Assembly: GCA_026394855.1 (NCBI GenBank) | Contig: JAPLZT010000056.1 | Span: forward strand, 1 to 7,326 | From: Candidatus Woesebacteria bacterium | Lineage (GTDB): Bacteria; Patescibacteriota; Microgenomatia; UBA8517 | Direction: 5' to 3' | Length of the DNA: 7,326 nucleotides | In this document: positions 32 through 7,326 of the stretch, piece by piece | Layout of the letters: every line of letters begins with the position of its first letter | Numbering within the stretch: position 1 is the first letter of the stretch | Notes under the pieces: model-generated | Databases searched by the model: none | What the model saw: the letters and a program-made list of their open reading frames with translations, nothing else | Told to the model about the DNA's origin: nothing | Translations under genes and position numbers: made by a program

Positions 32-100
32 AGTACAAAGTACACAGTACTTAGTACCTAGTTTCGAACACTAAATTCTTTGTACTCTGTACTATGTACT
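32..100. repeat. Two 7-base-period GTAC arrays forming an imperfect inverted repeat
   Basis: GTAC occurs at 33, 40, 47 and 54, then again at 82, 89 and 96, each time exactly 7 bases apart; the two arrays are also in phase (54 to 82 is 28 bases). The left arm 32-50 pairs with 82-100 in 17 of 19 positions, with one A-A and one C-C mismatch. The loop holds a further small TAGT/ACTA stem (59-62 with 70-73). The regular period allows alternative registers shifted by 7 bases. The element lies between a strong ribosome site and the prgI start. It could be an RNA control structure, a protein-binding operator array, or a dispersed genomic repeat; the sequence alone does not decide. Confidence 0.75.
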
Positions 101-106
101 AGCTTT

Positions 107-1069
107 ATGGAATCTCACGCTATACCACAACAAATATCTTCTTACCAATTTAGGCTTGTCGGAGATATGACTCTAAAGCAGTTCTTTCAAATTGCCGGTG
201 GGGCTTTGATTGCATTTATTATTTATTCTCTTCCCCTTATGGGAATTATTAAGTGGCCCTTGGTTGTTATATCCGCACTTTTAGGTATTGCTCTTGCCTT
301 TTTACCTTTAGAAGAAAGGCCACTAGAGAGGTGGATTTTTGCTTTTTTTAAATCTGTTTATTCTACAACTCTTTTTTCCTGGAAAAAAACTGAAAAGGAG
401 TTTAACTACTATCGGGATGAAGCTGCTGCACCTTCCGAAAAGATTCTTTACGCCGGAGGGGAAGCAAAACTGCAGGAATATCTTAAAAAATCTTCTTCAA
501 ACTCTTTTTCCGGAAACTTAGAAAAAATCGAGGGTAGTTTTCTTTCGGGTATTACAAACATATTTACCAGTGTTGTTCCGTCAATAAAAGTGGGGGGACC
601 ACCCCTCACTGCTCCCGAACAAATACCCGTTCAAATACCTGTTGTTAGAAATATACCTAAATTGTTTGTAGAAGAAACTACCTCTCAAGCAAAAGCACCG
701 GGGTCGGTTTCCACAACAGTCGTACCTGTTACTTCGGGGTATGGAACGGTTGCAGCAAAGCAGGTTCAATTTTCCATAGACGCCGCCCCCCCCAGCCCCC
801 CAACAACCCCAAACACCCTAACGGGCCAAGTTATTGATCAGGAAAAACATATTGTCGAAGGGGCAATTATGGAAATAAGAGATTCAATGGGCCGCCCCGT
901 TAGGGCTCTTAAAAGCAATAAGCTGGGTCATTTCATGGTGGTCACTCCCCTGATGAGCGGAAAATACGAAATTATTACCGAAAAAGACGGCTTTAGTTTC
1001 GAACCTCTTGGTTTCGAAACTACCGGCACAATTATTCCACCGATTGCAATATATGGTAACAAAATTTAA
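107..1069 (+). CDS. PrgI/VirB3-like inner-membrane T4SS protein with C-terminal carboxypeptidase-regulatory-like domain
   Basis: The 320-residue product starts with a PrgI-family signature: PQQISSYQFRLVGDMTLKQF at residues 7-26, followed by two hydrophobic segments (about 26-44 and 48-67) and the typical FLPLEERPLERW stretch (65-76). PrgI proteins occupy the VirB3 position in Gram-positive and CPR conjugation systems, in the inner membrane next to VirB4. After a Lys-rich segment and a low-complexity Pro/Thr/Val linker (about 180-235), residues 236-318 look like a carboxypeptidase-regulatory or Ig-like beta-sandwich (GQVID, VEGAIMEIRD, KSNKLGHF, YEIITEKDG). A classical PrgI is only about 100 residues, so this is a fusion. 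I chose ATG 107 because it begins the conserved MESHAIPQQ start; an in-frame TTG at 80 would translate part of the GTAC array. Its 3' end overlaps the next gene by 17 bases. Family call is firm, the C-terminal domain moderate. Confidence 0.85.
   Translation: MESHAIPQQISSYQFRLVGDMTLKQFFQIAGGALIAFIIYSLPLMGIIKWPLVVISALLGIALAFLPLEERPLERWIFAFFKSVYSTTLFSWKKTEKEFNYYRDEAAAPSEKILYAGGEAKLQEYLKKSSSNSFSGNLEKIEGSFLSGITNIFTSVVPSIKVGGPPLTAPEQIPVQIPVVRNIPKLFVEETTSQAKAPGSVSTTVVPVTSGYGTVAAKQVQFSIDAAPPSPPTTPNTLTGQVIDQEKHIVEGAIMEIRDSMGRPVRALKSNKLGHFMVVTPLMSGKYEIITEKDGFSFEPLGFETTGTIIPPIAIYGNKI
589..610 (+). other. Strong G/C hairpin inside the prgI coding sequence
   Basis: Bases 589-597 pair with 602-610 in a 9-base-pair stem (one G-U pair) closed by an ACCA tetraloop, in otherwise AT-rich DNA. 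It encodes V-G-G-P-P-L in the linker of the PrgI-like protein. No T-run follows, so it is not an intrinsic terminator. It may simply reflect Gly/Pro codons, or it may slow ribosomes or affect mRNA stability. Confidence 0.45.
786..801 (+). repeat. Two poly-C tracts in the prgI linker
   Basis: A run of eight C (786-793), an AG interruption, then a run of six C (796-801) encode the Pro-rich linker before the C-terminal beta-sandwich. Such runs stand out in this AT-rich gene. A one-base slip in the run of eight would shift the frame and cut off the C-terminal domain while leaving both membrane segments intact. The same tract is also a likely place for sequencing or assembly error. Confidence 0.5.
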
Positions 1070-1730
1070 TATTCCTAAAATTCCATTATTGGGAGTTCCG
1101 GACGCTCCCTTAATGGCGTCTTCCCAAGAACATTTACCAATTTCCGATATTTGCGAAGATATTGTTCTTTTCAAAGACGGAGGGGCCGCCCTTGTAATGG
1201 AATCCACATCTCTTAATTTCAGTCTTCTTTCTGAAAAAGAGCAGGAAGCTGTAATTGCAGCTTACTCGGCCTTACTTAATTCTCTTTCTTTCTCCGTTCA
1301 GATTGTAGTTAGAAGTCAGAAGAAAGATATATCTACTTACATGAATTATCTTGATGAATCTGCCAAAAAAATTGCTAACCCGGGCCTTTATAGACTTATG
1401 CAGTCATACAGAAAATTTATTATTGAATCCGTTAAAAAGAAAAATGTGCTGGGTAAAAGATTTTATGTTGTTCTTCCTTTTAGTTCTCTTGAACTGGGAA
1501 TTGCAAAATCGGTTCTTGCCATAACCAAAAGAAACGGACCCCTGCCTTACCCAAAATCATATGTTATTAAAAAAGCTAAAGTGGTTCTTTATCCCAGACG
1601 AGACCATCTTATAAGACAAATGGGAAGGCTTGGAATTAAGCTTAGACAACTTGAAACCGATGATTTGGTCAATCTTTATTATGAGGTCTACAACCCAATA
1701 AAACCTGAGGAAAGGAAAAAGGAATATTAA
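1053..1730 (+). CDS. TraC-like small protein of a CPR conjugation cluster
   Basis: The 225-residue soluble product has no signal peptide or membrane span. Residues 36-66 (DIVLFKDGGAALVM, then SLNFSLLSEKEQEA) followed by LLNSLSFSVQIVVRSQKKDIS resemble the N-terminal region of VirB4/TraC ATPases, where a conserved beta strand precedes an NF..LS.EEQ-type helix. It has no Walker motifs, so it is not itself an ATPase. Similar small TraC-like proteins sit between prgI and virB4 in CPR genomes (from memory, not searched here). I start it at ATG 1053, overlapping prgI by 17 bases and giving MVTKFNIPKIPLLG; there is no clear ribosome site, so coupling to prgI is likely. ATG 1113 (residue 21) is an alternative. 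The stop TAA shares one base with the virB4 ATG. A role as partner or separated domain of VirB4 is inference. Confidence 0.7.
   Translation: MVTKFNIPKIPLLGVPDAPLMASSQEHLPISDICEDIVLFKDGGAALVMESTSLNFSLLSEKEQEAVIAAYSALLNSLSFSVQIVVRSQKKDISTYMNYLDESAKKIANPGLYRLMQSYRKFIIESVKKKNVLGKRFYVVLPFSSLELGIAKSVLAITKRNGPLPYPKSYVIKKAKVVLYPRRDHLIRQMGRLGIKLRQLETDDLVNLYYEVYNPIKPEERKKEY
1718..1723 (+). promoter_or_regulatory. Ribosome binding site of virB4
   Basis: AAAGGA lies 6 bases before the ATG at 1730, with another AGGAAAGG just upstream (1708-1715). This supports the ATG at 1730, whose first base is also the last base of the preceding TAA stop. Confidence 0.6.
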
Positions 1731-4700
1731 TGGTAAATTCTAAACCGGTAATCTCAAGTGTTGCCTTAGCCCTAAAACAAAAGGAATTAAGAGTGCGGGA
1801 TATTGTTGCCCCGGAAAAGATAGAGGTTGATTTTGATTACTTTAAAATTAATGATGTTTACTTTAGAACCATTTTTATTGCAGGATATCCAAGGTTCGTA
1901 ACCCCCGGATGGCTTGAGCCAATTGTTAATTTTGACAATTCCTTAGATATTTCTTTTTACATTTATCCTGTTGATGGAAAATCGATTCTTGATGATCTTC
2001 GCAGAAAGATTGCTGAAATGGAAGCCGAAATTTCAACCGATCTTCAAAGAGGAAAGATATTAGATCCCCTGACTGAAGCAAAACTGGAAGATGCAAGAGC
2101 CCTTCAGGAACAACTTGTAAAAGGAGCCGAAAGGTTCTTTGAATTTGGTTTTTACATCACAATTCCTGCATCAACCTTAGAGGATCTAAACCACACAACA
2201 AAACAGATTGAATCCACACTTGGATCGTTAATGGTTGTTGCCAAACATGCCCTTCTTGATCAGGATAGTGGATTTTTGACAACTGCTCCTTTTGGTTTTG
2301 ACAGATTAAATATTACAAGGAATATGGATACCACATCCCTTTCTACAACTTTTCCATTAACATCCGCCGAACTTTCAAGCGACACCGGAATTCTTTACGG
2401 AATAAATTCTAAAAACGAATCGTTTATTATCTTTGACAGATTTTCTTTGGAAAATCCGAACATGACGATCTTCGCGACATCTGGAGCCGGTAAGTCGACA
2501 GGTTATGACACAGAAGTTATCTATGAGGATAAAAACAAACAAATTAAAAAGGAAAAAATAGGAAAACTTGTAGACATGTTAATGGAAAATGGCAAACCAG
2601 AAAAAATCGAAAAAGATATAGAAGGTATAATTGATCCTAAAATAAAGGTTTTTTCCTTTGATAAAAATCTAAAGGGAGAATTGTCAAAAGTAATAATAGC
2701 TGCAAGAAAAACTTCACCAAAAAATCTTTATAGGATAACAACCAAGAGTGGAAGAGAAGTGGAAATAACCAAAGACCACTGTCTTGTAACTCTAAAGAAA
2801 GGGATTATTCAAACCAGTAAAGGCAATTCTATCAAAATCGGTGATTATATTCCTCTTCCAAGAGGAATTAATTACGAGGGAATTAGTATCAGCAAAATCA
2901 ATACTTACGATATTCTTAAAAACTCGAACATTAAACACTTAAGAACCCGCTTCGATAGGGTTGGAAACCATTTAATAAGATATTCTGGAAGTATTCCAAA
3001 AATAATTGAGGCCGACTCAGATTTCTTTACGTTTTTGGGCTTACTCGCTTCTGAAGGCATGACGGGTTTTAATCGAGTACTTATTTCAAATACTGACCCA
3101 CTTATCCTGAACTTTACTGCTAAATATTTAGATTCTCTTAAAATCCGACACAATTTCATCATCAAAAACCATAGAAGAGTTGCTGTCAACGTATTTTCAG
3201 AAACTTTTCAGAAGTTCTTAGAAAACATTGGTTCTGGAGGCAGGTCTGGCTTTAAGAAAGCTGCTGATCTTGTTTTTTCCGCGCCCAAAAACCTAGTAGC
3301 AGATTATCTACGTGCATATTTTGAGGGCGATGGTACGGTTAGTGAACATGACATTTCGGCAACAACAAAATCCAAACAGCTTGCATCAGATCTTTGCTAT
3401 CTCCTTTACCGTTTTGGGATTATTGCAAGAATTTCAACTAAGAAAAAGGTTGCCACAAACACTGCGGCAAAAAAGGTGGGTGTTTACTACGCAATCAACG
3501 TTTACGGCCAAGATAATATTGGCAAGTTTATCGAAAATATTGGCTTTATGTCCGAACAAAAAAATCTTAAATCGCGAAAACTTATAAAAGAAGGCAACAC
3601 CAACGTAGATGTCGTTCCTGAGATTGGCAATATCTTTAAAGAGATTCATAATGTTTTATATAAATCCTCCGAACTTGGGGCCCCAAGAAAGTTCTCTGAA
3701 ATCAAACTTGGTATATTTAAACCGTCAAGACAAAATCTCCTTTCCGTCATTAATAAAATTGAGTTAGATATACAAAAATTTGAAGATCTGGAAGGGGATG
3801 GCCTTTCGACGCTAAACAGCCTTCCCAGCACAGAAGAAATCATTTTTAAAGGTAAGTCTAAGGAGAAAAATTCTTTGTTATGGCAAGCCTTAGGGGGTTC
3901 CTGGAGCAGCATCCGAAACGGCGCCCAAGCAGAGTTGAGAAACTCTCTTATGGCCATTTCAATCACTCACGATTACCAGTACTCAACAGAGGACGTCGGT
4001 GGTGCAATTTATCGAAGCTTTAAAAATACCGGTGAATCCTTAATGCTCTATGACAAAACATTATGGAACTCGGTAATGTATTGCAAAGGAAATACTTTGT
4101 ATAAAAGAGTTTTGAAAGCAAGAGATTATATAGCCAGCAAATACACTCAAAAGAAAATGCGAGTAGGAAAAATAAAAGAGAAACTTAATTGGCTTAAAAC
4201 ACTAGCAAACTCAGATCTTTTCTGGGACCCAATAGTAAAAATCGAAAAAATAAAATCCAAGAACAAATATGTTTATGATCTACAGGTTGACAATGCTGTT
4301 TTCGTAGCTGGAAATGCGGGAATGTTTGTCCATAACTCGTTCTTTGTAAAACTTGAGGCACTAAGAAGTTTGATGCTGGGAACAGAGGTTATAATTATTG
4401 ATCCGGAAACAGAATATAAACCTTTAGCAAAAGCTGTCGGGGGAGAATATATTTCTTTTTCATTTAACTCTCCTTCAAAGATAAATCCTTTCGACCTTTC
4501 TCAAGCAATTGAAGAAGGAGAAAATCAACTGGGATTAAAAATCCTTTCTTTGCATTCTCTTTTTAAAGTAATTATGGGGGTAATTACTCCAATTCAGGAA
4601 GCTTTGCTTGATCGCGCCCTGGTTTCTACTTATAGAGCCAAAGGAATTACACAGGATGTCGCAACCCAGACTAAAGAACCGCCGTTAATGGAAGATCTTT

Positions 4701-5326
4701 ACAAAACCTTAATCGGAATGGAGTCTCCGGAGGCACTAGATCTTGCGGCAAGAATAGAAAAGTTTGTCAGGGGAAGTTTTGTGGGAATATTTGATCAACA
4801 AACTAATGTTAATTTAAAAAATCCTTTTACTGTTTTTTCGGTTAGGGATCTTCCGGATGCACTAAGACCAATTGCCATGTTTGTAATACTTGATTACATT
4901 TGGACAAGAGTTAAAAAAGACCTCAGGAAACGCCTCTTAATCGTCGAGGAAGCCTGGCATATGATGAAGTACCCCGATACCGCTCAATTTCTTTGGTCGG
5001 TCGTCAAAAGGTCAAGGAAATATTTCTTGGGGTTAACAACAATTACACAAGATGTTGAAGATTTTCTTTCTCAGGATATTGGAAAAGCAATCGTTACAAA
5101 TTCTGCGCTGCAGCTTCTTTTAAAACAATCTCCTGCGGCAATAGACAAAGTTGGAGAAGTTTTTTATCTTTCCCAGGGAGAAAAAAATCTTCTTCTTGCT
5201 GCAAATGTCGGAGAAGGAATATTTTTTGCAGGACCCCATCATGCGCCCATTAGGATTACGGCATCGCAGGATGAATATCAATTAATAACATCCAAGCCAC
5301 AGGATTTAATTGCTAAACAGCCATGA
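1730..5326 (+). CDS. virB4: VirB4/TraC-type T4SS ATPase interrupted by an intein in its P-loop
   Basis: The 1198-residue precursor consists of N-extein 1-255, intein 256-869 and C-extein 870-1198. VirB4 is the cytoplasmic ATPase that powers pilus or substrate handling in type IV secretion. The N-extein has the VirB4 N-terminal fold (SFYIYPVD, RRKIAEMEAEI, FGFYITIPA) and ends in Walker A, TSGAGK (250-255). After the intein the P-loop resumes as SFFVKLEALRSLMLG, then IIIDPETEYKPLA and INPFDLSQ, Walker B RLLIVEEAW with Glu1073/Glu1074, and the ITQDVEDFLS motif near Thr1106-Gln1107. Removing the intein gives a 584-residue protein, a normal size for VirB4, with an uninterrupted P-loop TSGAGKSFFVK. 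Before splicing the P-loop is broken and the enzyme should be inactive. The gene overlaps its upstream neighbour by 1 base and its downstream neighbour by 4. The frame is intact, so this is not a pseudogene. Confidence 0.93.
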   Translation: MVNSKPVISSVALALKQKELRVRDIVAPEKIEVDFDYFKINDVYFRTIFIAGYPRFVTPGWLEPIVNFDNSLDISFYIYPVDGKSILDDLRRKIAEMEAEISTDLQRGKILDPLTEAKLEDARALQEQLVKGAERFFEFGFYITIPASTLEDLNHTTKQIESTLGSLMVVAKHALLDQDSGFLTTAPFGFDRLNITRNMDTTSLSTTFPLTSAELSSDTGILYGINSKNESFIIFDRFSLENPNMTIFATSGAGKSTGYDTEVIYEDKNKQIKKEKIGKLVDMLMENGKPEKIEKDIEGIIDPKIKVFSFDKNLKGELSKVIIAARKTSPKNLYRITTKSGREVEITKDHCLVTLKKGIIQTSKGNSIKIGDYIPLPRGINYEGISISKINTYDILKNSNIKHLRTRFDRVGNHLIRYSGSIPKIIEADSDFFTFLGLLASEGMTGFNRVLISNTDPLILNFTAKYLDSLKIRHNFIIKNHRRVAVNVFSETFQKFLENIGSGGRSGFKKAADLVFSAPKNLVADYLRAYFEGDGTVSEHDISATTKSKQLASDLCYLLYRFGIIARISTKKKVATNTAAKKVGVYYAINVYGQDNIGKFIENIGFMSEQKNLKSRKLIKEGNTNVDVVPEIGNIFKEIHNVLYKSSELGAPRKFSEIKLGIFKPSRQNLLSVINKIELDIQKFEDLEGDGLSTLNSLPSTEEIIFKGKSKEKNSLLWQALGGSWSSIRNGAQAELRNSLMAISITHDYQYSTEDVGGAIYRSFKNTGESLMLYDKTLWNSVMYCKGNTLYKRVLKARDYIASKYTQKKMRVGKIKEKLNWLKTLANSDLFWDPIVKIEKIKSKNKYVYDLQVDNAVFVAGNAGMFVHNSFFVKLEALRSLMLGTEVIIIDPETEYKPLAKAVGGEYISFSFNSPSKINPFDLSQAIEEGENQLGLKILSLHSLFKVIMGVITPIQEALLDRALVSTYRAKGITQDVATQTKEPPLMEDLYKTLIGMESPEALDLAARIEKFVRGSFVGIFDQQTNVNLKNPFTVFSVRDLPDALRPIAMFVILDYIWTRVKKDLRKRLLIVEEAWHMMKYPDTAQFLWSVVKRSRKYFLGLTTITQDVEDFLSQDIGKAIVTNSALQLLLKQSPAAIDKVGEVFYLSQGEKNLLLAANVGEGIFFAGPHHAPIRITASQDEYQLITSKPQDLIAKQP
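2495..4336 (+). mobile_element. Large LAGLIDADG intein in VirB4 Walker A motif
   Basis: This in-frame insertion of 614 residues (256-869 of the precursor) self-excises at the protein level. The N-terminal splicing block is STGYDTEVIY with Ser256 as first nucleophile; the usual residue is Cys. Block B is GREVEITKDHC with Thr347 and His350 in the expected TxxH arrangement. The C-terminal block is VYDLQVDNAVFVAGNAG followed by FVHN, with penultimate His868 and terminal Asn869, and the +1 extein residue is Ser870. A homing endonuclease sits in the middle, and a segment typical of archaeal-like inteins (NVDVVPEIG, about 624-633; NSDLFWDPIVKIE) lies before the C-block. The insertion point is between Lys and Ser of GAGK/S, a well-known hotspot for inteins in P-loop ATPases. 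Codons for Ser1 and Ser+1 are both TCG. All residues needed for splicing are visible, so it is probably active. A Thr257 start would also leave a P-loop but fits block A poorly. Confidence 0.93.
3011..3568 (+). other. LAGLIDADG (DOD) homing endonuclease domain of the intein
   Basis: Precursor residues about 428-613. The first dodecapeptide is FLGLLASEG (435-443) with acidic Glu442; the second is YLRAYFEGDG (526-535) with Asp534. These two acidic residues are the metal ligands of the active site in this family. A following IGFMSEQK segment (604-611) matches the conserved end of DOD domains. The family cuts intein-free alleles of the host gene so that repair copies the intein in. Both acidic residues are present, so it may still be active; the target would be the uninterrupted virB4 P-loop DNA. 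Domain limits are approximate. Confidence 0.88.
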
Positions 5327-7326
5327 CCAAATTACCTGACATAACACTTCTAACAGCGAGGCAAATAGAAGAAGTATTAAAAACTTGCGATAGCTATCTG
5401 GGTAAAAAACTTGGGCTAGATGGTGCTATTGAGAACACAAATCTTCCAATTGTCGTTTCAAGTCTTAATTTATCATGGCTTACAATCGATCTTTTCGAAA
5501 ACGACCTTAATTTCTGGACTAAACAAAAAAATATCCGTTCCACTTATACGGAACTTTATAAAGTCTGGGAACAAAAACTGGTCCAGGAAAAATCCGGAAA
5601 GGTTGAAAAAACAACTTTAACGCCGGAGGAAATGGAAAAACTCGAAAAAGAAGCGGAAAAACAAAAACAGCAAAAGGCCCAGTCAACAGCCAAAAGTCAA
5701 AAAGACATAGAGCAATTTGTTAAACAACAAAAGGCAATTGCCGAAGAAGCTAAAAGAGCCAAAGAAACATTAAAAGACAAAAAAATTTATGTTAAGGTCT
5801 CCGAGCCGGAACCAATAAAATTAACCAGCGATGAACAAAAAGCCTTCAACAATCTGCAATCAATGGCCCAAGAGACACCGCACATTCTGGTAAAAAATAT
5901 TACCAAAACTATTGAAGAAAAGCTTCTTGAAATAATCAAAGGTGGCGCAACACCAGAAGAAATTCATTACTATGCAGAGGTCGTTGCGGTTAAAGCCGTA
6001 GATAATCTTCGTGCCGAACCAAAACCTGTTGATAAAGACCCGGTTGTTCTTGCTTCTTTATCAAACCATTCTGAGATTTTAGATAAATTGGACATATCCG
6101 AAGCCGACAAGAAATTTATTACAAAAGCCTCAAGCGATTTGGCCACCCTTAAAATGCTTCCCTATCGCACAAATCAACAAATTCTTGCTTCCGTTTTTGG
6201 TAAAAACATTACCGAAAAAATTCTCGGTCCTGATCCAACTACTTTAAATGTTACTTTTACTGACCAACCGCAGGAATCCACCGACTCTGTTCCTTTAGAT
6301 AGGTTGGCAGAAAATTATCAAACGGTTGCCGAAAGCCCAATATTTTCGCAAATTCAATCGTTCGGTGTAGATGAAATTAAAGGAAAACTTATTGATTACG
6401 GCAAGGAAAAAGTTCTTGGACAAATAAGTAAACTCCCCGCTGACAGTTTTCTTGGCAAAATTGCCGCCTCCGAAAAATTCAGCGGTATTATTAATCTTTT
6501 AAAACCAGCCCAAACAATTGAAGCAACCAATCTTTTCGGAAAACTGATAATGAACTTTTCGCCGGAATTTGCCCCGGTTGTAAGCGGCTTGGGACAATTG
6601 ATTGGTGTTGATTTCGGATTAATCTCTGTTCCAGCAACTGCCGTTGTAACTCCAGTTATTATCCCTATGGAAGCAATTGCAATTCAAGGAGCGGTTACTA
6701 CAACTCCGACCATAATTGCTACTGCAGGTCAGGTGGCCAAAAAAGGTCTTAGCGGTCTTAATATTGCTTTAGGGAATGCCGTAGCAAGGGGTGGTGCTGC
6801 AATTTTTTCAAAAATTGGGCTTACAGCAGCTTCAAAAGTTTTAGCAGGTATGGTAGGAACTGGTCTAGCTGGACCGGTTGGTTTTATTGTTACTCAATTA
6901 GCCTTTGCGTTATTTGGAAAACTAATTGAAAAAATTGGTCCATGGATTAAAAAACATCAGGATGATTTAAAAATTGCCGGGTTAATAACACTTGGTGGAG
7001 GAGCTATCACAAGTTCTATTCCGATTCTTATTATTGGCGGCTTAATTTTTATACCAGCTGCACTCAAAACTGGTTTTTCTTTGGCGGGTATCGCGGCAAG
7101 AACCACGTTTTTGTTTGGAAGAATTGGGGCATCAATGGCCATAACCATCGGAACTCCGATTATTGTCGCCATTATCGTTTTTCCAATTTTAGTGGCAATT
7201 ATTTTATTTATCATTAATTCCGGAGCATATCTTGTTCCACCATCACAATCTGCCATAATCTCAAATTTAATCAATCCATATATTGGAGTCGAAAAAGTCG
7301 CTTCTCCAGCAGGACCTTTTCAGAAC
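5323..7326 (+). CDS. Large coiled-coil and multi-spanning membrane protein of the T4SS cluster, 3' end cut by the window
   Basis: An open frame of 668 codons starts at ATG 5323, overlapping the virB4 stop by 4 bases (ATGA), and has no stop up to the window end. Residues 1-95 are a soluble domain, about 100-154 a Lys/Glu/Gln-rich coiled coil, and about 160-405 a mixed helical region. From about 415 it becomes Gly/Ala/Val-rich and hydrophobic, with likely membrane segments near 506-531, 551-581 and 605-631. After the last span comes GAYLVPPSQSAI and then NPYIGVEKVASPAGPF, which resembles the start of a DUF11-type extracellular beta domain; large CPR T4SS proteins often continue this way, sometimes to a peptidoglycan hydrolase (from memory). 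There is no signal peptide. A VirB6/TrbL-like channel role next to VirB4 is inference; I do not recognise a named family for the N-terminal half. No strong ribosome site precedes it, so coupling to virB4 is likely. Confidence 0.8.
   Translation, partial: MTKLPDITLLTARQIEEVLKTCDSYLGKKLGLDGAIENTNLPIVVSSLNLSWLTIDLFENDLNFWTKQKNIRSTYTELYKVWEQKLVQEKSGKVEKTTLTPEEMEKLEKEAEKQKQQKAQSTAKSQKDIEQFVKQQKAIAEEAKRAKETLKDKKIYVKVSEPEPIKLTSDEQKAFNNLQSMAQETPHILVKNITKTIEEKLLEIIKGGATPEEIHYYAEVVAVKAVDNLRAEPKPVDKDPVVLASLSNHSEILDKLDISEADKKFITKASSDLATLKMLPYRTNQQILASVFGKNITEKILGPDPTTLNVTFTDQPQESTDSVPLDRLAENYQTVAESPIFSQIQSFGVDEIKGKLIDYGKEKVLGQISKLPADSFLGKIAASEKFSGIINLLKPAQTIEATNLFGKLIMNFSPEFAPVVSGLGQLIGVDFGLISVPATAVVTPVIIPMEAIAIQGAVTTTPTIIATAGQVAKKGLSGLNIALGNAVARGGAAIFSKIGLTAASKVLAGMVGTGLAGPVGFIVTQLAFALFGKLIEKIGPWIKKHQDDLKIAGLITLGGGAITSSIPILIIGGLIFIPAALKTGFSLAGIAARTTFLFGRIGASMAITIGTPIIVAIIVFPILVAIILFIINSGAYLVPPSQSAIISNLINPYIGVEKVASPAGPFQN

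What the first reader, a model, noticed from the sequence alone, without database searches (positions are those of the whole stretch)
2495..4336. Intein breaks the P-loop of a type IV secretion ATPase in a probable CPR bacterium
The sequence shows complete splicing blocks at both ends and a P-loop that becomes TSGAGKSFFVK on excision. Inteins favour P-loops of replication and repair ATPases; one in VirB4, the motor of a conjugation-like machine, places DNA or protein transfer under control of splicing. A homing element in a transfer gene could also exploit the transfer machine to meet intein-free alleles. Conditional control (for example redox, temperature or metal) is speculation.
Basis: partly seen in the sequence, partly recalled or inferred. 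Interest (0 to 1): 0.78.

Follow-up and report, generated by a model that had tools for sequence, protein, structure and literature searches.

The report
Intein splitting a secretion motor's P-loop
In a tiny uncultured bacterium the only detected gene for the motor of its type IV secretion machine is interrupted, exactly inside the ATP-binding loop, by an intein that is predicted to cut itself out of the protein and likely spreads by homing; relatives carry or lack it patchily, so in carriers the motor would work only after splicing.

Summary
Confirmed and extended. Window 2495-4336 encodes a 614-residue LAGLIDADG intein inside a VirB4-type T4SS ATPase (ORF 1730-5326), between the Walker A Lys and Ser (GAGK|S...HN|SFFVK; spliced length 584). 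It has a large family: of 209 VirB4 sequences sorted, 128 have a bounded intein (all with +1 Ser; 123 keep both endonuclease acids), 75 lack it. Exteins 98.8-99.0% identical occur with and without it; 15 of 281 sampled genomes of the class carry it, while 256 have VirB4. On the extein tree presence needs 20 changes, and one horizontal transfer is supported (AU p=0.0024). No relaxase or coupling protein of the families tried was found here, so 'hitch-hiking on conjugation' is not supported; ComEC uptake is a likelier route (inferred). P-loop inteins are a known kind; the searches I made found no report of one in VirB4. Splicing, homing and conditional control are untested.

The parts
80..1069 (+). 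PrgI family protein with a CarboxypepD_reg-like tail; T4SS neighbour
   Evidence: Pfam PrgI 27.3 bits, cut-off 27; CarboxypepD_reg 19 bits, below its cut-off of 32.3
1008..1730 (+). TrsD-like / VirB4 N-terminal-like protein; start unsure (ORF overlaps the previous one); its stop overlaps the virB4 start
   Evidence: NCBIfam TrsD E=1e-6, 28.7 bits, below its cut-off of 200; no Pfam match
1730..5326 (+). virB4 precursor ORF (1198 aa) containing the intein
1730..2494 (+). N-extein (255 aa), ending in the Walker A half GAGK (2483-2494)
   Evidence: aligned to intein-free VirB4
2495..4336 (+). Intein (614 aa), VirB4 site a (GxGK|S)
2495..2497 (+). Ser1, predicted N-terminal splicing nucleophile
   Evidence: Ser 109, Cys 13, Thr 6 of 128 inteins
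2768..2779 (+). Block B, T-K-D-H (intein residues 92-95)
   Evidence: T92 and H95 in 128 of 128, D94 in 127 of 128
3035..3058 (+). First LAGLIDADG motif (LGLLASEG), catalytic acid Glu187
   Evidence: E187 in 124 of 128
3296..3544 (+). LAGLIDADG_3 domain with second motif YFEGDG (3317-3334), catalytic acid Asp279
   Evidence: Pfam 63.8 bits, cut-off 22.5; D279 in 126 of 128
3545..4192 (+). Region between endonuclease and C-terminal splicing block without a Pfam match of its own; after its endonuclease the UvrB intein of this genome has a helix-turn-helix, so perhaps DNA-binding (inferred)
   Evidence: role not tested
4271..4288 (+). Block F, VYDLQV
   Evidence: D595 in 128 of 128
4331..4339 (+). 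Block G His613-Asn614 plus extein Ser+1 (4337-4339), which is also the Walker A Ser
   Evidence: H613 and N614 in 128 of 128; +1 Ser in 128 of 128 and 205 of 205 bounded inteins of the wider set
4337..5323 (+). C-extein (329 aa)
   Evidence: P-loop_TraG E=2.1e-24
5323..7326 (+). Downstream gene; start overlaps the virB4 stop; runs off the contig. By eye hydrophobic in its C-terminal part, perhaps VirB6-like (inferred)
   Evidence: no family over a cut-off; ORF

Best explanation
Window 2495-4336 encodes a 614-residue intein with all the conserved splicing residues and both endonuclease acids, lying between the Lys and the Ser of the VirB4 Walker A loop, which is predicted to splice itself out and so make the only detected T4SS motor of this genome able to bind ATP, and which likely spreads by homing into intein-free virB4 alleles. 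Shown from sequence: site, splicing blocks, kept endonuclease acids, clean intein-free alleles, patchy distribution, a discordant placement of at least one intein and its extein. Inferred: Ser1 attacks, the chain passes to Ser+1 (the Walker A Ser), Asn614 cyclises and the P-loop closes; the endonuclease cuts intein-free P-loop DNA, and repair from the intein allele copies it in. Because poor splicing would cripple an ATPase probably needed for growth on a host, selection on the host keeps the intein splicing (inferred). Entry of donor DNA by ComEC-type uptake rather than by the T4SS is the likelier route here (inferred).
For: Motifs and domains. Intein-free VirB4 up to 85% identical over the C-extein; pairs with and without intein at 574/580, 573/580 and 562/568 identical extein residues. 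Presence and absence within a genus: g41, g85, g99, g69. Presence needs 20 changes on the 198-row extein tree, at least 14 forced by starred branches, shuffled mean 60.3. P0150: intein inside the Amesbacteria-type clade (99*), extein outside it, AU p=0.00236. Both endonuclease acids kept in 123 of 128. Best solved relative by profile is PI-PkoII, E=2.3e-46, matching both splicing halves and the endonuclease. One VirB4 match in this genome and in 14 of the 15 intein-bearing genomes of the class sample.
Against: No splicing or cutting was observed; structure prediction could not be run. The near-invariant Trp63 (125 of 128) is Leu in the window and in P0003. NCBIfam intein_Cterm falls just short of its cut-off. 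Intein and extein identities correlate (r=0.70 over 7503 pairs), so much of the history is vertical. A second suspected transfer (Collierbacteria) was not rejected as vertical at 0.05 (p=0.0556). No clear co-conversion peak at the site in the one DNA pair examined. Five of 128 have lost an endonuclease acid. Third codon positions and the Ser codon of the target vary, so the enzyme would have to tolerate them.
Confidence: 0.88

Rival explanations
1. The intein is a kept switch: splicing waits for a signal (redox, host contact, nucleotide or DNA) and holds the T4SS motor off until then.
For: The insertion breaks the catalytic loop of a probably essential motor, usually the only copy found. Conditional splicing is reported for DnaB and RadA inteins (starts of abstracts in the listing: PMC6195587, PMC7360933, PMC5790916).
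Against: Patchy: 15 of 281 class genomes, and alleles about 99% identical do without it; the endonuclease acids are kept in 123 of 128, as expected of a homing parasite; no sensor domain among the Pfam matches of 44 members.
Confidence: 0.07
2. The window's copy no longer splices, leaving a dead VirB4.
For: Leu in place of the near-invariant Trp63; also in P0003.
Against: The catalytic residues are kept, the frame is open over 1198 codons and no second VirB4 was found. P0003, with the same change, also has an open frame (1223 aa).
Confidence: 0.04
3. The segment is a native, unspliced domain of VirB4, or an assembly error.
For: None found.
Against: It would break the Walker A motif; 75 of 209 sorted VirB4 sequences lack it exactly at the junction; separate assemblies carry it, including chromosome record CP066693.1.
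Confidence: 0.01

Closest known systems
PI-PkoII, archaeal intein with LAGLIDADG endonuclease (2cw7; DNA polymerase host recalled)
   Same: Same order of splicing half, endonuclease, splicing half; best profile match among solved structures
   Different: Other host protein; the stretch between endonuclease and C-terminal block is not matched
P-loop inteins of DnaB and of RecA/RadA
   Same: Placed at the P-loop of an essential ATPase (PMC5874633 passages)
   Different: Host here is a secretion ATPase, not a replication or repair enzyme; DnaB intein chains match only weakly in the profile search
Intein of Methanocaldococcus MJ0781 (2jmz; KlbA, name recalled)
   Same: Intein in a protein of the secretion-ATPase kind (recalled); the N-terminal splicing part matches
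   Different: Matched over profile positions 18-123 only; KlbA is GspE/VirB11-like (recalled), not VirB4
LAGLIDADG homing endonucleases in CPR rRNA genes (I-ShaI; PMC11270868)
   Same: Site-specific homing elements widespread in CPR, with signs of horizontal transfer (passages)
   Different: Those sit in rRNA insertion sequences; this is a protein-splicing element

Membership tests
Class 1 intein | Nucleophile (Cys or Ser) at residue 1 (definition recalled) | tested here: met
   Ser1; 6 of 128 relatives have Thr1, unusual (recalled)
Class 1 intein | Block B TxxH | tested here: met
   TKDH; T and H in 128 of 128
Class 1 intein | C-terminal His-Asn followed by Ser, Thr or Cys | tested here: met
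   HN|S
Class 1 intein | In-frame insertion with clean intein-free homologs | tested here: met
Class 1 intein | Actual protein splicing | not testable with these tools
   needs expression
Class 3 intein | No nucleophile at residue 1, Cys in block F (definition recalled) | tested here: not met
   Ser1; block F is VYDLQV, without Cys, Asp595 in 128 of 128
LAGLIDADG homing endonuclease | Two motifs with catalytic acids | tested here: met
   E187 and D279; LAGLIDADG_3 over cut-off
LAGLIDADG homing endonuclease | Cutting of the empty site | not testable with these tools
   needs a cutting assay
VirB4-type T4SS ATPase | Family score over the curated cut-off | tested here: met
   NF045971 (VirB4-like, CD1110) 364.6 against 325, P-loop_TraG 86.4 against 25.8; the broad TIGR00929 VirB4_CagE, 91.5 against 643.1, is not met
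Conjugation system | Relaxase and coupling protein | tested here: not met
   No match to PF03432 or PF02534 in this genome, about 90% complete; other relaxase families not tried

The most novel reading that the evidence does not exclude
A P-loop-specialised intein lineage, shared by bacterial VirB4 and archaeal HerA motors and able to slide between the two GK|S steps of one Walker A loop, has become the maturation gate of the sole T4SS motor in many Patescibacteria, so that host attachment or feeding starts only when splicing is released.
Probability: 0.08. Interest if true: 0.82.

Novelty: new member of a known kind. Interest (0 to 1): 0.5.

Why it matters
It puts a likely homing parasite inside the ATP-binding loop of the motor of a machine whose genes, in the one Patescibacterium examined experimentally, are essential for growth on its host (PMC12102498 and PMC12857230, passages). 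It widens the list of P-loop inteins beyond replication and repair, ties VirB4 and HerA (and, more distantly, UvrB) together through one intein superfamily across bacteria and archaea, and offers a natural case of an intein found at two places five residues apart in the same loop. Near-identical alleles with and without it make homing, splicing and cost directly testable.

Tried and rejected
Rejected: native VirB4 domain, assembly error, class 3 intein (see tests).

Papers searched for a prior report: intein+VirB4 (5 papers), inteins+candidate phyla radiation, intein+Patescibacteria, intein+type IV secretion+ATPase+homing endonuclease, and the mixed-term searches, of which I saw the listings only. 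I saw passages of PMC5874633, PMC11270868, PMC12857230 and PMC8987985, and of PMC12102498 the abstract, passages and two sections ('intein' occurs 0 times in its text). The 2016 survey of intein clustering (PMC4760082) is not held, so a listing of VirB4 there cannot be excluded; InBase was not available.

Rows dropped or doubtful: searches list only the best 120 of 5012, 198 and 433 matches and scored only about 8000 candidates each, so the sorted sets are a best-matching part, not a census. One search left 6 of 209 sequences unbounded and misplaced one (P0181), corrected by hand; 5 of 203 exteins were left out as fragments; one search left 15 of 292 unbounded. The 128 include the window itself and near-duplicates (L074 and P0149 carry the same intein). 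One of the 27 sites in the DNA profile (L036) is the downstream half of a site-b allele, not an empty site.

Full report
What is there. The window is a whole contig (C159) of an 835,613-base, 159-contig genome. ORF 1730-5326 encodes 1198 residues. Residues 1-255 and 870-1198 form a VirB4-like T4SS ATPase (NF045971 364.6 bits, cut-off 325; P-loop_TraG). Residues 256-869 form an intein with splicing and LAGLIDADG_3 domains over their cut-offs. Junctions are GAGK|STGYDTEV and FVHN|SFFVK: the break lies between the catalytic Lys and the Ser of the Walker A loop, and that Ser is the +1 residue. Joined length is 584. Upstream lie a PrgI gene (just over its cut-off) and a TrsD-like gene (below its cut-off), downstream an unmatched gene.

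Family. Searches with the C-extein and with the intein (best 120 of each listed) and genomes of the class gave 192 proteins and 17 loci that I sorted: 128 with a bounded intein, 75 intein-free, 6 unbounded (P0181 corrected). Residue 1 is Ser in 109, Cys in 13, Thr in 6; T92, H95, D595, H613 and N614 are in 128 of 128; E187 in 124, D279 in 126, both acids in 123. With a third search the set of 292 proteins holds 205 bounded inteins, all with +1 Ser (five of them are HerA inteins). A scan of one genome per GTDB species found 174 related stretches, of which 80 were kept; those with a VirB4 C-junction include records named Woese-, Ames-, Collier-, Gottesman-, Shapiro-, Harrison-, Yanofsky-, Nealson-, Nomura-, Magasanik-, Kaiser-, Taylor-, Zambryski- and Uhrbacteria.

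How common. In an even sample of the class, the window's own genome included, 15 of 281 genomes match the intein at E<=1e-20, and VirB4 is in 256 of 281 at E<=1e-60. The junctions of the 14 other carriers were read: all end in HN|S before VirB4; for G019 only the C-terminal side could be read, because its contig ends. In a sample of 379 genomes of the phylum 7 match the profile at E<=1e-50: three carry it in VirB4 (G000, G036, G351, the last with an endonuclease that looks eroded by eye) and four in UvrB (G510, G525, G550, G608, recognised by eye from their likeness to this genome's UvrB); the window's genome has both. VirB4 is single in 14 of the 15 carriers of the class sample; G084 has two matches.

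Gain, loss and transfer. Four genera hold genomes with and without it: g41 (G190/G282), g85 (G151/G078), g99 (G094/G178), where the empty allele was read, and g69 (G204 against G061, G241, G253), where absence rests on no match and VirB4. Exteins 574/580, 573/580 and 562/568 identical differ in having it. On a quick tree of 198 exteins its presence needs 20 changes, at least 14 forced by starred branches, shuffled mean 60.3. Intein and extein identity correlate (r=0.70, 7503 pairs), so inheritance is largely vertical. But the P0150 intein (Chisholmbacteria by its source name) is 71-75% identical to Amesbacteria-type inteins whose exteins are only 64-68% identical to its own; the intein lies in their clade (99*), the extein outside, and holding its extein with theirs is rejected, AU p=0.00236. 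The group was chosen after seeing the identities, so that p is a guide. A like case in Collierbacteria gave p=0.0556.

A second site in the same loop. Six relatives (L069, L079, P0182, P0188, P0189, P0191) read VFGK|S...HN|SGxGKS, five residues upstream of the usual site. Their exteins contain the step GK-Ser twice (FGKSGxGKS). In the intein tree the five tried (L102 and L116, the named records of L069 and L079, with P0182, P0188 and P0191) form one clade, support 100*, inside a 98* clade of otherwise site-a inteins. On the extein tree, however, the five site-b rows there need two changes, so either the intein moved place once and was then passed on, or the move happened twice; I hold the first likelier. 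I infer a move by one repeat unit, perhaps because cutting or repair took the other GK|S step.

Wider kin. Archaeal HerA-type proteins carry relatives at the homologous break GITGSGK|S...HN|SYLVK (L132, L134, DUF87 by Pfam; P0193-P0197), and an Altiarchaeota VirB4-like gene, cut off by its contig end, has GTSGGGK|S (L131; its extein gave no Pfam match at E<=0.001). The UvrB intein of this genome (GSGK|S...HN|TFTV) is up to 37% identical to VirB4 inteins but lies on a long branch whose place is unsure. Two further inteins of the genome are in a tyrosine recombinase (VLRH|C...HN|SFATD) and in GyrA (AMRY|C...HN|TEVKL).

Mechanism. Inferred from established intein chemistry: Ser1 acyl shift, transfer to Ser+1, Asn614 cyclisation, ligation. 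In the precursor the intein follows the Walker A Lys, so it should not hydrolyse ATP. The target is partly fixed: in 27 neighbouring sites (of 29 loci scanned) the first two bases of both Gly codons and of the Lys before the break and the Val, Lys and Glu codons after it do not vary, while third positions and the Ser codon (TCN or AGY) do, so the enzyme would have to tolerate wobble. This is a homing-parasite explanation; nothing here demands a host benefit.

PF03432 and PF02534 give no match in this genome, about 90% complete, whereas the ComEC family does. Most Patescibacteria T4SS clusters lack a relaxase (PMC12102498 abstract). T4SS genes of a cultivated Saccharibacterium are reported essential for growth on its host (PMC12102498 and PMC12857230 passages); applying this to the window's lineage is inference.

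Novelty. Inteins at P-loops are a known kind (PMC5874633 passages). The searches listed under Tried and rejected gave no report of an intein in VirB4; most listed database entries have no name, and the named ones read 'LAGLIDADG family homing endonuclease', 'intein/homing endonuclease' or 'VirB4 component-like protein' and the like. I therefore call it a new member of a known kind, with a new host protein and a site-shifted variant.

Noticed in passing
Own genome contig C109 (locus L084:5126-8626): UvrB carries an intein (520 aa) at the Lys|Ser/Thr break of its P-loop, with a helix-turn-helix after the endonuclease; four other Patescibacteria in the phylum sample (G510, G525, G550, G608) seem to have it too.
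   Followed up: partly
Own genome contigs C79 (L085:157-2379, minus) and C157 (L086:3-2093, minus): A XerC/D-like tyrosine recombinase split at RH|SFAT and a GyrA split at AMRY|TE carry LAGLIDADG inteins; with VirB4 and UvrB that is four inteins detected in a 0.84-Mb genome, all at or near active sites (active-site places recalled).
   Followed up: partly
L069:4545-6347 (minus), L079:3824-5626 (minus), P0182, P0188, P0189, P0191: Site-b VirB4 inteins, five residues upstream in the same P-loop; one clade in the intein tree (five tried), two changes on the extein tree.
   Followed up: yes
P0090, P0114, P0118, P0129, P0130, P0175: Inteins of this family with Thr as residue 1, an unusual first residue (recalled); whether they splice is open.
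   Followed up: no
L176/L179 (G351), P0108, L073, P0144, P0160, P0188: Family members with eroded or mutated endonuclease but kept splicing residues: candidates for splicing-only inteins.
   Followed up: partly
L132:5722-8715, L134:2400-5480, P0193-P0197: Archaeal HerA-type (DUF87) proteins with a related intein at the homologous P-loop break.
   Followed up: partly
Window intein residue 63 (2681-2683): Leu where 125 of 128 relatives have Trp; P0003 shares it.
   Followed up: no
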